Origin: Prevotella sp.
GTDB taxonomy: Bacteria > Bacteroidota > Bacteroidia > Bacteroidales > Bacteroidaceae
DNA length: 32,829 nucleotides
NCBI GenBank assembly: GCA_024690505.1
Contig: JAILPA010000092.1
Span: 1-32,829, forward strand
Direction of reading: 5' to 3'
This document shows, one piece after another, positions 1,618 through 28,365 of this stretch. The translations under genes and the position numbers were made by a program. The notes beneath the pieces were generated by a model. It had not been told where the DNA came from. It worked only from the letters and a program-made list of their open reading frames with translations, and did no database searches. Position 1 is the stretch's first letter; each line of letters starts with the position of its first letter.

Positions 1618-1762
1618 ATTTTCTTTACACGGATATTTTTGCAAATAGTGAAGCACCGCTTTGAGGGTGTTAAAGCGGTGCTTTTTTACCTTCAAAGCGG
1701 TGCTTTTCCACCCTTAAAGCGGTGCTTTTCCAAAAACGCTGTTACACAGCATTTTTTGCGAA
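1618..1762. repeat. 145-bp dispersed element with a 22-nt-period palindrome array (copy A)
   Basis: The 368-nt gap between ychF and the fucosidase gene holds no gene but contains this element. It opens with CTTTACACGGATATTTTTG, shared exactly with copy B at 28222. Next comes an inverted unit AAGCACCGCTTT (1651-1662), then three direct units AAAG-CGGTG-CTTT with centres 22 nt apart (core CGGTGCT at 1676, 1698 and 1720). A conserved tail follows (TTTCCAAAA, then a T-rich stretch ending near 1762). The inverted and first direct units form a perfect 12-bp stem with a 9-nt loop followed by T6, so it could terminate plus-strand transcription. On the minus strand it forms the 3' flank of the fucosidase gene. 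I do not recognise it as a named family. Confidence 0.75.
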
Positions 1763-1799
1763 GTTGAATTATTCTTACATTTTCCCGGTTCCGAATCCT

Positions 1800-4325
1800 T
1801 TATCGGGCGGCTTTCAGCGTATAGGCGATGCCTGGTTCCGTGGGCAGGTCGTACTCATAGACCTGTTTCAGCTGTGGCTGAGGCTTTTGGCTAAGCTCGG
1901 GCGAGCATAGCGGCTGGCGTATGTCGGCAGGCATGAGGAAGGTGTTGGGGCAGGGGCCCTGGGCCGGAGTCAGCCCTTTGCCCGTCAGCGGCACGTAGGA
2001 GCGCAAACGCAGTGTGCCACCGATGGTGCTCTGTATGGTGGCCGTCTGCAGCAGTCCTCCGTTCCACTGCTCATCGACGATGAATCCGCCACGTGCCCGC
2101 AGACCCTTCACCTGGCCCTCGCTCCAAGCATCGGGCAGGGCGGGCAGCAGATGCACGGCGCCGTCGTGGCTCTGCACCAGCATCTCGCAGATGCCGGCGC
2201 TGACGCCGAAGTTACCATCGATCTGGAACGGCGGATGGGCGTCGAAGAGGTTGGGATAGGTGCGTCCGTCGGGGTGCTGGCGCATCTTCGAGTCGTCGGG
2301 CAGCAGATGGAGCATGTTCTTGATAATCTGGAAGGCGTGGTTGCCGTCGAGCATACGTGCCCAGAAGTTGGTCTTCCATCCCAGGCTCCAGCCCGTGGCC
2401 TTGTCGCCGCGCTGGTTGAGGGTGTTTGCGGCGGCAGCGAAGAGGTCGGGGTGGGTGTAGGGCGAAATCTGGTTCGAGGGATACAGGCCATAGAGGTGGC
2501 TGATGTGGCGGTGCTCGTCCTTAGGGTCATCGGCATCGATGAGCCACTCCTGCAACTGTCCGTAGCGGCCTATCTGCATGGGTGGCAGGTTGGCAAGCTG
2601 GAACTTCAGGCTCTCGGCAAACAGGCTGTCGGTGCCCAGTGCCTGCGCGGCGAGAAGTGCCTGGCTAAGCACGTCGAAGGCAATCTGGTTGTCCATGGTG
2701 GAGCCAGCGCAGACGTTAGTGCCCTTGCCACGAGGACCGTGCTCGGGCGACACGGTGGGGACGGTCATCAGCCATCCTGCTGCCTGTTTGATTTCGCCCG
2801 ACGAGGGATACACCTGCATGTAGTCCAGCAAGAACTGGGCGGCGCCTTTCATCACGGGGTAATACTCTTTCAGGAATTGCTTGTCGCCGGTGTAGAGGTA
2901 GTGCTGCCAGAGGTGGGTCGTCAGCCAGGCGCCGCCCGTTGGGAACATTCCCCAGGGGGTGCCGTCCACGGGCCCTGCTATGCGCCAGAGGTCGGTGTTG
3001 TGATGGGCCACCCAGCCGCCGCAGCCGTACATCTGGCGGGCTGTAACGGCGCCGGTCTCGCTGAGGTCTTTCACCATCGAGAACAGCGGTTCCTGGGTCT
3101 CTGCGAGGTTGCCGATGAGGGCGGGCCAGTAGTTCATCTCGGCGTTGATGTTGATGGTGTACTTCGAGTCCCACGGCGCGTTCATCTTGTCGTTCCACAC
3201 GCCCTGCAGGTTAGCAGGCTGTCCGCCGGGCTGGCTCGACGAGATGAGCAGGTAGCGGCCGTACTGCATCATCAGTGCCACGAGGTCGAGGTCGTCCTGC
3301 GACGTCTCGAAGGCTGCCACGCGCTTGTCGGTCTCCAATGAGGAGTTCGCCGACTTCGGCAAACTCAACGACACGCGGTTGAACTGCTCCTGGTATTTCT
3401 TGACGTGGGCCTTCAGCAACTTGTCGAAGGGCTGGCTGTGGAGCTGTCCCAGCAATTTGATATTGGCATCCGAGGCAGCATCGGCAGGCCCCACCTCCTT
3501 GTAGCTGACAAAGTTGGTGGCAGCCGTGATGTAGAGCGTGGCGGTGGTGGCATCGTCAACCTCGAAGCCTTGGTTTTGATTCGTTTTTTTCACTTCTCCG
3601 TCGGTCACAATCTCAATGTCGCAACTGCCCTTGAGGCCTGCTGGCACACCCTCGTGCTCCACATTGTGCAGGCTCATTGCCAGTTGGTGGCGTAGCTTGT
3701 TGCCTCCAGCACTTACCGATTGAGCCAACCGCCAGTCGGCCAGTGGGCTGTTGAGTTCCATCTTGAAGCTAAGCTCCCCTTTCTTGCTTGCCTTCAGCTG
3801 AACAACGATGACGTTGTCGGCCATCGAGGCGAAGACGGTGCGCTCGTACTTCACGCCGTCGTATATATAGGAAGTGGTGGCGGTGGCATCGCCGAGGTTC
3901 AGCGCCCGCTCATACTTCGTCACGTCCTTATGGCCGAAGTCGAGCTTCAGGCTGCCCATGGGCAGGTAGCGCATACCGTGGGGGCCCGGCACGAAGTACT
4001 TGTCGAGCAATTTCGATGCCTCGAGCTCCTTGCCCTGGAAGATCAGGCGTCGCACCTCGGGCAGGTTTGCCAGAGCTTCCTTGGGGTTGTTGTTGTGTGG
4101 ACTTCCGCTCCAGAATGTCTCCTCGTTCAGCTGGATTTCCTCCACGTCGGTGCCACCGTATACCATGGCGCCGAGATGGCTGTTGCCGATGGGCAGTGCT
4201 TCAAGCCAGTGGTGGGCGGGTTCACTGTACCACAGCCGCATCTGGTTGGGCGACTGTTTGGCGGAGAGTGTCTGGGTTGCCGTCGCAAGAATTGCCAGTA
4301 CGGCTAGGGTCAATAGTCTTCTCAT
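1800..4325 (-). CDS. Secreted glycoside hydrolase family 95, probable alpha-L-fucosidase
   Basis: The 841-residue protein belongs to GH95, inverting enzymes that remove alpha-1,2-linked L-fucose from glycans (some members act on L-galactose). It starts with a signal peptide (MRRLLTLAVLAILATATQTLSA), so periplasmic or surface action is expected. The N-terminal domain opens with LWYSEPAHHWLEALPIGNSHLG. The catalytic (alpha/alpha)6 barrel contains NIN of NINAEMNYWPA (N392, N394), E528 in SPEHGP, and D703 in QIDGNFG. These align with Asn421, Asn423, Glu566 and Asp766 of Bifidobacterium AfcA. I chose the ATG at 4325 over the one at 4361, because the longer form adds 12 residues before the signal peptide and begins inside a heptamer repeat. 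It follows ispG by 39 nt at the end of a long operon. No susC/susD or other glycan genes adjoin it. Confidence 0.92.
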   Translation of the reverse strand: MRRLLTLAVLAILATATQTLSAKQSPNQMRLWYSEPAHHWLEALPIGNSHLGAMVYGGTDVEEIQLNEETFWSGSPHNNNPKEALANLPEVRRLIFQGKELEASKLLDKYFVPGPHGMRYLPMGSLKLDFGHKDVTKYERALNLGDATATTSYIYDGVKYERTVFASMADNVIVVQLKASKKGELSFKMELNSPLADWRLAQSVSAGGNKLRHQLAMSLHNVEHEGVPAGLKGSCDIEIVTDGEVKKTNQNQGFEVDDATTATLYITAATNFVSYKEVGPADAASDANIKLLGQLHSQPFDKLLKAHVKKYQEQFNRVSLSLPKSANSSLETDKRVAAFETSQDDLDLVALMMQYGRYLLISSSQPGGQPANLQGVWNDKMNAPWDSKYTININAEMNYWPALIGNLAETQEPLFSMVKDLSETGAVTARQMYGCGGWVAHHNTDLWRIAGPVDGTPWGMFPTGGAWLTTHLWQHYLYTGDKQFLKEYYPVMKGAAQFLLDYMQVYPSSGEIKQAAGWLMTVPTVSPEHGPRGKGTNVCAGSTMDNQIAFDVLSQALLAAQALGTDSLFAESLKFQLANLPPMQIGRYGQLQEWLIDADDPKDEHRHISHLYGLYPSNQISPYTHPDLFAAAANTLNQRGDKATGWSLGWKTNFWARMLDGNHAFQIIKNMLHLLPDDSKMRQHPDGRTYPNLFDAHPPFQIDGNFGVSAGICEMLVQSHDGAVHLLPALPDAWSEGQVKGLRARGGFIVDEQWNGGLLQTATIQSTIGGTLRLRSYVPLTGKGLTPAQGPCPNTFLMPADIRQPLCSPELSQKPQPQLKQVYEYDLPTEPGIAYTLKAAR

Positions 4326-4351
4326 AGCTTTATGTGTTATTGTTTGTTGTT

Positions 4352-4386
4352 CATTCCTCATTCCTCATTTCTCATTTCTCATTCCC
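4352..4386. repeat. Heptamer tandem array at the ispG/GH95 junction
   Basis: Five 7-nt units are directly repeated: CATTCCT, CATTCCT, CATTTCT, CATTTCT, CATTCCC. On the minus strand each unit contains ATG overlapping TGA, and the array spans the ispG stop codon. It encodes the last ispG residues (GMRNEK) and supplies an upstream in-frame ATG for the fucosidase. Confidence 0.85.
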
Positions 4387-28003: not shown

Positions 28004-28067
28004 AAGGCGAAGTGTGCTTGCCAGCCCAGGGAAGACGCCTTCACAGCGTGAGTTCGCCTAAGAAATG

Positions 28068-28180
28068 CTATCTCGGACTATCTCGTGCTGTTGCATCGGA
28101 CTATCTCGGACAATCTCGGGCTATCTCGGGCTATCTCGGACAATCTCGGGCTATCTCGGACTATCTCGGCCATTCCGTGT
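28068..28180. repeat. Decamer tandem array downstream of ftsZ
   Basis: Nine units of exactly 10 nt, variants of CTATCTCGGA and CAATCTCGGG, are visible: two at 28068-28087, a 13-nt degenerate piece, then seven from 28101 to 28170, trailing into CATTCCGTGT and GTCCGTTTAGTCCGTT. An open frame of about 100 codons runs through it but is only the repeat translated (LSRTISGYLG-like) and is not called as a gene. The array fills the first part of the 411-nt ftsZ/recO gap. Confidence 0.85.
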
Positions 28181-28221
28181 AAGTCCGTTTAGTCCGTTGC
28201 AGCAAACCAATCCGACTGTCA

Positions 28222-28365
28222 TTTTTCTTTACACGGATATTTTTGTAAAAAGTAAAGGACAGCTTCGAGGGCGGAAAAGTACCGCTTTTTCACCCTCAAA
28301 GCTGTCCTTTTCTACCTTCAAAGCTGTCCTTTTCCAAAAGTCCCGTTGCGAGGCACTTTTTGTGA
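28222..28365. repeat. 144-bp dispersed element with a 22-nt-period palindrome array (copy B)
   Basis: It is homologous to copy A at 1618: the same CTTTACACGGATATTTTTG start and the same TTTCCAAAA plus T-rich end, in the same strand orientation. The repeat centres differ: AAAG-TACCG-CTTT (28278), AAAG-CTGTC-CTTT (28298 and 28320), with an inverted copy AAAGGACAGCTTC at 28254. The inverted copy and the first CTGTC unit with their GAGGG/CCCTC flanks pair over 18 bp with one mismatch (28254-28271 with 28293-28310), around a 21-nt loop. It lies between the convergent ftsZ and recO genes and could act as a terminator for one or both. Confidence 0.75.

What the first reader, a model, noticed from the sequence alone, without database searches (positions are those of the whole stretch)
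1618..28365. A modular repeat family: 13-nt palindrome plus 9-nt spacer, exact 22-nt period, at four loci
Arrays at 1651-1728, 11585-11665, 18959-19037 and 28254-28332 share one architecture. A palindromic frame (AAAG-N5-CTTT or GAAC-N5-GTTC) is followed by a 9-nt spacer, so centres fall exactly 22 nt apart, about two helical turns. The N5 is uniform or nearly so within three loci but differs between them (CGGTG, CTGTC with one TACCG, GACAG); only the GAAC locus varies internally. Spacers often contain ACC(C/T): TTTACCTTC, TCCACCCTT, TTCACCCTC, GACACCCGA. At 18959 the centre is the reverse complement of that at 28302, while the spacer strand is kept. Uniform arms and centres plus fixed spacing suggest either arrays of protein-binding sites on one DNA face or a repeat class spread and homogenised by an unknown mechanism. 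I know of no named family like it. All four lie outside genes.
Basis: partly seen in the sequence, partly recalled or inferred. Interest (0 to 1): 0.8.

Follow-up and report, generated by a model that had tools for sequence, protein, structure and literature searches.

The report
Phased palindrome arrays between Prevotella genes
Some Prevotella genomes carry many short arrays of mirror-image DNA sites, mostly between genes and spaced exactly 22 bases apart, in which the arms and the spacing stay the same while the core letters often change from lineage to lineage; they are likely docking strips for an unknown paired DNA-binding protein.

Summary
The four arrays are real. A 13-nt frame (AAAG-N5-CTTT) at 22-nt pitch occurs at 245 places in the host genome, its backwards control at none. 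Two window arrays (1619-1781, 28223-28385) are copies of one 163-nt element; of 65 distinct copies in held DNA, 56 are exactly 163 nt. The array at 18959 is bare; 11586 belongs to a second family (GAAC arms, 48 places).

The class is lineage-wide: 19 of 71 same-genus genomes, and named Prevotella, Xylanibacter and Bacteroides species. Arms and pitch stay; N5 words mostly differ by genome, though CATAG recurs. In five of eight genomes an arm-blind scan peaks at loops 5 and 9, distance 22: a dyad every 11 bp.

Arms diverge 3%, spacers and flanks 20%; one of 8 indels lies inside the array. Arrays fold back as RNA, but outside the host's element hardly better than versions with units flipped. That favours duplex recognition, likely by a dimeric protein (inferred). 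RAYT is missing in three array-rich genomes. PINSR of P. intermedia is the closest published repeat; its sequence could not be compared.

The parts
1619..1781 (+). copy of the 163-nt element core: left direct repeat TTTTCTTTACA, 31 nt to unit 1, four units, right palindrome, right direct repeat ending TTACATT
1650..1728 (+). four-unit AAAG-N5-CTTT array, units at 1650, 1672, 1694, 1716 (first arm GAAG); between ychF and a GH95 gene
11586..11664 (.). four-unit array of the second arm family GAAC-N5-GTTC, pitch 22 (outer arms AAAC and GTTT), with longer GAAAC/GTTTC half frames nearby; between a divergent ABC transporter gene and mraZ
18959..19037 (+). bare four-unit array, all N5 = GACAG in one orientation, no element flanks; between mraY-like and murD genes
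28223..28385 (+). second copy of the 163-nt element core, between convergent ftsZ and recO
28254..28332 (+). four-unit array of that copy: GACAG, TACCG, CTGTC, CTGTC
28336..28360 (+). right-hand palindrome of the core (AAAA...TTTT), its centre 22 nt beyond the centre of unit 4; co-varies across copies
   Evidence: index sum 250: 0 of 1000 permutations, the strongest of 29 registers tried
32565..32591 (-). outer right end of the larger element (GCTGTTGCGATGTTTAGCGGACAGCAA) without core or array, after a gyrB-like gene

Best explanation
These are copies of a dispersed, mostly intergenic repeat class of Prevotella and its relatives, whose conserved core, a row of dyad-symmetric sites every 22 bp with dyads every 11 bp, is likely a docking strip for an unknown dimeric DNA-binding protein that would line up on one face of the duplex. 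Shown: many copies; fixed pitch; arms far more constrained than spacers; N5 words that are shared within a genome and mostly differ between genomes; a preferred number of units (four in G000 and G039, five in P. histicola and in 8 of 15 G012 arrays); an extra dyad (TTTGTAAC-n3-CTGATTATCAG-n3-GTTACAAA) usually at a fixed offset beside the array in G039, P. histicola and G012. Shown: outside the host genome's own element, predicted foldback is hardly stronger than with units flipped at random. Inferred: the protein, its dimeric state, and that changes of N5 between species track changes in that protein or in the master copies. In the host genome the core probably travels inside non-autonomous elements; 12 of 63 cores have an inverted-repeat end ACGTGAGTTCGACCTAAG. 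N5 and spacers each lie between inverted 4-mers, so they can probably flip separately by template switching (inferred).
For: Frame and pitch: 245 places vs 0 control; the arm-blind scan of 1.2 Mb from 8 genomes has its top cell at loop 5, distance 22 in G039, G012, G010, G000 and (tied with loop 9) G047; it is weak in G065 and G004 (3 and 2) and not the top cell in G053. Lineage: 19 of 71 same-genus genomes, 1 of 47 from other families of the order; 24 of 251 genomes of the family draw, host included, 8 of 30 genera. Words: G039 CATAG 133 and CTATC 36 of 191 units; G041 CGGTC 14, CGGTA 9, CGGCA 8 of 48; G010 ATGAC 14, ATAAC 11 of 65. Unit number: 41 of 46 arrays of 3 or more units in G039 have four. 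Constraint: over 56 copies of 163 nt, arms diverge 0.034 from consensus, N5 0.137, spacers 0.197, flanks 0.204 and 0.209. Indels, by anchors outside the array: 7 in 57 nt of flank, 1 in 79 nt of array (p = 0.012). Hairpin control: real arrays fold no better than orientation-flipped ones in G039, P. histicola, G012 and G041; in G039 units 2 and 3 have the same orientation in 35 of 41 (pattern table). Flank dyad: G039 28 of 91 sides vs 2 of 273 control, P. histicola 9 of 18 vs 0 of 54 (the motif was drawn from these two), G012 7 of 30 vs 0 of 90. No gene-strand preference: 8 vs 7 codirectional cases in G000, 12 vs 11 in G039.
Against: No binding protein was found or tested. In G000 cores the orientation is ++-- in 46 of 51, u1-u3 and u2-u4 words co-vary (0 and 1 of 1000 permutations), and folding beats flipped versions in 51 of 51; G010 also folds slightly better (11 of 15, t -2.1). 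That fits a foldback, though shared ancestry could also give it. The indel result is modest and flanks contain A/T runs that slip. Arm constraint could partly reflect gene conversion or young copies. The word CATAG/CTATG recurs in several genomes (G039, G012, P. ruminicola, B. xylanisolvens), so words are not strictly genome-specific. Most stretches scanned for G000, G010 and G012 were chosen around known arrays, which favours the 22-nt cell there. The bias to convergent gaps is significant in G000 (24 of 43 vs 43 of 165, p = 0.0004) but not in G039 (11 of 39 vs 33 of 150, p = 0.40).
Confidence: 0.42

Rival explanations
1. The arrays act as RNA (or cruciform) foldbacks at gene ends, for example bidirectional terminators or 3' end stabilisers.
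For: Strong predicted folding: 51 of 51 G000 cores, 33 of 41 G039 arrays and 9 of 9 P. histicola arrays have z below -2; the window's GAAC array has z -6.2. G000 cores prefer convergent gaps. u1-u3, u2-u4 and the right palindrome co-vary in G000.
Against: Outside G000 real arrays fold no better than versions with units flipped, apart from a weak gain in G010. In G039 unit words show no positive pairing. The bare array 18959 has no fold (z +1.45, +0.33 with longer ends) and lies between mraY-like and murD genes, a likely read-through site. No strand preference. No Rfam family in the window except tRNA.
Confidence: 0.2
2. A purely selfish non-autonomous repeat (MITE-like) with an internal minisatellite; arms and pitch matter only for its own transposition and the copies have no host role.
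For: High copy number, gene-avoiding sites, lineage-specific copies, array-free orthologous site in G041; inverted-repeat ends on 12 of 63 cores, first 12 nt identical to the MITE239 end listed in PMC4596501.
Against: 51 of 63 cores show no such end within 300 nt at 4 or fewer mismatches. Arms stay conserved six-fold better than flanks in diverged copies. Arrays in G039 and P. histicola show other flanks. No consistent target duplication in the 5 copies with both ends (by eye; one copy has TCA on both sides).
Confidence: 0.3
3. REP/BIME-type repeats mobilised by a RAYT (Y1) transposase.
For: Palindromic, intergenic, alternating orientation, high copy number. Five array-rich relatives (G004, G010, G044, G053, G065) do have a PF01797 hit.
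Against: PF01797 gives no hit in G000, G012 or G039, among the most array-rich genomes (G000 and G039 are about 81% complete, G012 99%), and many genomes with a hit have no array.
Confidence: 0.03
4. Chance or assembly artefact.
For: None found.
Against: Backwards controls are 0 in most genomes and at most 6; named isolate genomes carry the arrays.
Confidence: 0.01

Closest known systems
[quoted passage not shown] abstract, found passages, sections 2.3 and 3.4 read)
   Same: Intergenic, non-coding, 177 and 184 copies in two strains, divergent copies, no terminal inverted repeats reported, function unknown; same genus and similar length (188 bp).
   Different: Described as one 188-bp consensus of one species group, with no mention of a 22-bp dyad pitch in what I read. 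Its sequence is in a figure not held, so identity was not tested.
BrickBuilt MITE of Porphyromonas gingivalis (PMC4596501; abstract, section 5 and part 1 of section 7 read)
   Same: Intergenic element with a tandem repeat of nearly the same pitch between a leader and a tail; Bacteroidales.
   Different: 23-nt direct repeats without spacers, 1 to 22.8 units, 19 copies, found in P. gingivalis and P. gulae, other end sequences; here 22 nt, palindromic frames, mostly 4 or 5 units, several genera.
MITE239 / ISPg3 of P. gingivalis (Table 2 of PMC4596501)
   Same: The first 12 nt of the MITE239 end, ACGTGAGTTCGA, equal the start of the end motif found (at up to 4 mismatches in 18) at 12 of 63 host-genome cores.
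   Different: No array is described in MITE239 in what I read; most cores lack this end.
REP/BIME with RAYT (recalled; papers only seen in the listing)
   Same: Palindromic extragenic repeats in alternating orientation, often at gene ends.
   Different: No RAYT in three array-rich genomes; fixed 22-nt pitch with changing words.

Membership tests
PINSR | mostly intergenic, of the order of 100 copies or more | tested here: met
   245 frame pairs in G000, 52 of 62 distinct arrays in held DNA in the element; 46 arrays of 3 or more units in 520 kb of G039; 0 of 51 G000 cores and 2 of 41 G039 arrays inside a called frame
PINSR | 188-bp consensus sequence | not testable with these tools
PINSR | no terminal inverted repeats | tested here: inconclusive
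   12 of 63 G000 cores have an outer inverted-repeat end, 51 do not
BrickBuilt | 23-nt tandem repeat without spacers | tested here: not met
   pitch 22, palindrome 13 plus spacer 9
BrickBuilt | GAGACC-type IS5-like ends | not tested
   no search for this end was made
MITE | terminal inverted repeats | tested here: inconclusive
   9 left, 8 right, 5 both among 63 cores; chance 0.0045 per 300-nt window
MITE | target-site duplication | tested here: inconclusive
   flanks of the 5 two-ended copies show no consistent duplication by eye
REP/RAYT | Y1 transposase (PF01797) in the genome | tested here: not met
   no hit in G000, G012, G039; hits in G004, G010, G044, G053, G065
known structured RNA (Rfam 15) | match above gathering score | tested here: not met
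   only a tRNA in the window
phage-borne repeat | common in viral contigs | tested here: not met
   3 stretches from 2 contigs with three strict units in the viral collection

The most novel reading that the evidence does not exclude
A family-wide class of chromosomal docking arrays conserved by geometry rather than by letters: a dimeric protein reads dyads every 11 bp on one DNA face, the 5-nt core word drifts in concert across each genome with that protein, and at least two arm families (AAAG/CTTT and GAAC/GTTC) have settled on the same 13 + 9 pitch.
Probability: 0.3. Interest if true: 0.85.

Novelty: new variant of a known kind. Interest (0 to 1): 0.62.

Why it matters
Dispersed repeats are normally recognised by sequence. 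Here the conserved thing is geometry: pitch, dyad frame and a preferred number of units, while the words often differ from species to species. That could explain why a sequence-based description such as PINSR looks group-specific, and it gives a simple pattern to find the class anywhere. If a protein is behind it, these arrays would mark a chromosome-organising or gene-boundary system of a major gut, oral and rumen lineage; the lineage-specific words would make co-evolution of sites and protein directly testable.

Tried and rejected
Rfam search of the window: only a tRNA. RAYT/Y1 transposase as the mover: rejected. Global hairpin as the selected structure: rejected outside G000 by the flip control, with G010 slightly in favour; positive pairing coupling looked for in G039 and not found, before and after orienting the copies. 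A promoter in the left flank (a TAnnTTTG-like -7 box, recalled): not conserved across the aligned copies (by eye), dropped. Strand-specific terminator: no orientation preference. Plasmid carriage: no match for one element copy, the only query sent; phage carriage: 3 stretches. An autonomous partner for the end TTGCTGTCCGNTAAACA: sites found in 5 of 7 genomes but no loci could be cut, left open. Identity with PINSR: not testable here. Gene calls are my own simple open-frame calls, not a trained gene finder, 8 of 51 G000 cores and 2 of 41 G039 arrays at locus edges were dropped from the counts. In one search I aligned 49 of the 51 copies. Copies were chosen by units in register, so indels were judged only on the end-anchored set. 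That call prints 66 entries; the 149-nt one is a second anchor inside a copy already counted (L119), leaving 65 distinct copies, and the 189-nt one is a copy with another flank type. An earlier count gave ++-- as 48 of 51 and equal orientation of units 2 and 3 as 34 of 41 (the latter also used for a p value that is not quoted); recounted they are 46 of 51 and 35 of 41.
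Full report
Observation. The four arrays read as described and TRF gives period 22 at each. In the window there are 5 same-arm 13-mer frame pairs exactly 22 apart; 200 Markov sequences gave mean 0.01 and maximum 1. In the host genome (G000, 2,897,623 bases, 188 contigs) the AAAG pair pattern has 245 places and the GAAC pair pattern 48; the backwards controls have 0.

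Two of the four loci are one element. Window 1619-1790 finds many copies across the genome (80 matches, with only 40 of 138 candidates scored). Of 62 distinct AAAG arrays in held G000 DNA, 52 have the left direct repeat TTTTCTTTACA upstream, 48 of these at exactly 31 nt from the first recognised unit, and 49 of the 52 have four units; 10 are arrays without it, of 2 to 7 units, the window's 18959 among them. Anchored only by the end repeats, 65 distinct copies were found (66 entries, one counted twice): 56 are 163 nt, 7 are 164, one 160, and one 189 with another flank type. Of the seven +1 insertions, five lie in the right flank and two in the left flank; the 160-nt copy has a deletion inside the array. 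That is 1 of 8 events in 79 of 136 nt (p = 0.012).

What is constrained. In the 56 copies of 163 nt the left repeat diverges 0.010 from consensus, arms 0.034, N5 0.137, spacers 0.197, left flank 0.204, right flank 0.209, right repeat 0.076. Spacers thus drift like the flanks while arms and pitch hold. The end repeats were the search anchors, so their low values are partly by choice.

The class is wider than one genome. Among relatives, 19 of 71 same-genus genomes and 1 of 47 genomes from other families match; nine of the 19 have 27 or more places. The backwards control is mostly 0 but reaches 6 in G018; it is itself a dyad frame (TTTC/GAAA), so it may be another arm type. A draw of 251 family genomes, the host included, gave 24 with a match, in 8 of 30 genera. 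The 9 P. histicola arrays read have five units in 8 cases. The GAAC form matches in 5 of 119 genomes by its tally.

Geometry. An arm-blind count of equal 4-mer frames by loop size and distance has its top cell at (5,22) in G039, G012, G010 and G000, and tied with (9,22) in G047 (30 and 22 in G039; 96 and 79 in G000; median cell 1); (5,22) is the top but tiny in G065 and G004 (3 and 2) and not the top in G053. The G000, G010 and G012 stretches were mostly chosen around known arrays, the G039, G065 and G053 ones run from a contig end. Both N5 and spacer are therefore centres of symmetry, 11 bp apart. Unit number is quantised: 41 of 46 arrays of three or more units in G039 have four; G012 has five in 8 of 15, G010 four in 10 of 15, G041 four in 6 of 12. 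Words are shared within a genome and mostly differ between genomes, but CATAG/CTATG recurs in G039, G012, P. ruminicola and B. xylanisolvens.

Flanks. Oriented G039 copies share a right flank with CTGATTATCAA. The motif TTTGTAAC-n3-CTGATTATCAG-n3-GTTACAAA, drawn up from G039 and P. histicola, lies beside arrays, usually 10 nt off in these two and 7 nt off in G012: G039 28 of 91 sides (control 2 of 273), P. histicola 9 of 18 (0 of 54), G012 7 of 30 (0 of 90); G053 2 of 10, G000 2 of 68, G041 1 of 24, Marseilla 1 of 8, none in G065 (12) or G047 (4), and 4 of 34 in G010 against 3 of 102 control. In G000 cores the right palindrome sits 22 nt beyond unit 4 and co-varies (0 of 1000 permutations, the strongest of 29 registers tried), as if a decayed fifth unit.

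Hairpin or duplex. Arrays fold strongly: z below -2 in 51 of 51 G000 cores, 33 of 41 G039 arrays and 9 of 9 P. histicola arrays; the bare 18959 array has z +1.45. But dyad frames alone give foldback. Flipping each N5 and spacer at random keeps frames and content: real arrays then fold better in G000 (51 of 51) and slightly in G010 (11 of 15, t -2.1); not in G039 (16 of 41, on average worse), P. histicola (2 of 9), G012 (10 of 15, mean difference -0.1) or G041 (3 of 12). In G000 the order ++-- holds in 46 of 51 copies and u1-u3 and u2-u4 words co-vary; swapping words between copies by position makes no significant difference (t -1.4). I read this as shared ancestry on top of a duplex-level constraint, but it is the best evidence for the foldback rival.

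Place relative to genes. In my own gene calls G000 cores lie in convergent gaps in 24 of 43 cases against 43 of 165 gaps (p = 0.0004) and in divergent gaps in 4 of 43 against 42 of 165 (p = 0.02); in G039 neither differs significantly (11 of 39 vs 33 of 150; 5 of 39 vs 34 of 150). No strand preference (8 vs 7 in G000, 12 vs 11 in G039). In the dcw cluster, G041 has overlapping mraY-like and murD genes with no array where G000 has array 18959. Of 20 genomes inspected by eye at this junction (about 180 to 230 nt before murD), G000 and G039 carry arrays, with different words. G041, the closest by FtsZ (87%), shows by eye a four-unit array of its own after ftsZ, with some GAAG/CTTC arms, and one upstream of mraZ, where G000 has the GAAC array.

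Movement. Twelve of 63 G000 cores have an outer end like ACGTGAGTTCGACCTAAG (up to 4 mismatches; 9 left, 8 right, 5 both; chance 0.0045 per 300 nt); the first 12 nt of that motif equal the MITE239 end in Table 2 of PMC4596501. A different outer end is found at many other cores. PF01797 has no hit in G000, G012 and G039 but has one in G004, G010, G044, G053 and G065. How arrays with different flanks arose in other species is not known.

Literature. PINSR (PMC4755523) is a 188-bp intergenic repeat with 177 and 184 copies in two P. intermedia strains, about three quarters of its sites shared, function unknown. BrickBuilt (PMC4596501) is similar in plan but has 23-nt direct repeats without spacers. 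Nine searches showed no title or abstract start that describes a 22-bp dyad pitch; I opened only these two papers, and in part. The library lacks most subscription journals.

Judgement. Shown: a widespread repeat class conserved in geometry, arms and preferred unit number, with mostly lineage-specific words. Inferred: recognition of the duplex by a dimeric protein, and non-autonomous spread. The mechanism stays untested.

Noticed in passing
28068-28169: Ten-nt tandem repeat (CTATCTCGGA, about 10 copies) between ftsZ and the element core, preceded near 28046 by GCGTGAGTTCGCCTAAG, which resembles the inverted-repeat end of other copies.
   Followed up: partly
11244-11281: Perfect 19-nt tandem duplication TCTATATAACTGGAGTTAC upstream of the ABC transporter gene.
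   Followed up: no
L150-L159: A second FtsZ-like gene (53-57% identical to the window's) in ten of 20 genomes searched, the host genome included.
   Followed up: no
L224, L227, L229, L231, L233, L236 (mraY-murD junction): This junction holds different extra sequences in several genomes (CCCCTCCC-rich blocks in G053 and G065, other stretches in G004, G014, G026, G003), so it may be a hot spot for repeats (by eye).
   Followed up: no
L053, left of the array: G006 carries a further array of CAAATTG-centred palindromes that by eye also repeats every 22 nt, perhaps a third arm family.
   Followed up: no
G018, G220, G222: The backwards control (TTTC-N5-GAAA frames at pitch 22) has 6, 3 and 2 places in these genomes, perhaps another arm type.
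   Followed up: no
L125:1476-1664: One G000 copy has the flank dyad typical of P. histicola and G039 (GTGTAAACACCCTGAATATCAGATGGTTAGAAA), perhaps the older form of the element.
   Followed up: partly
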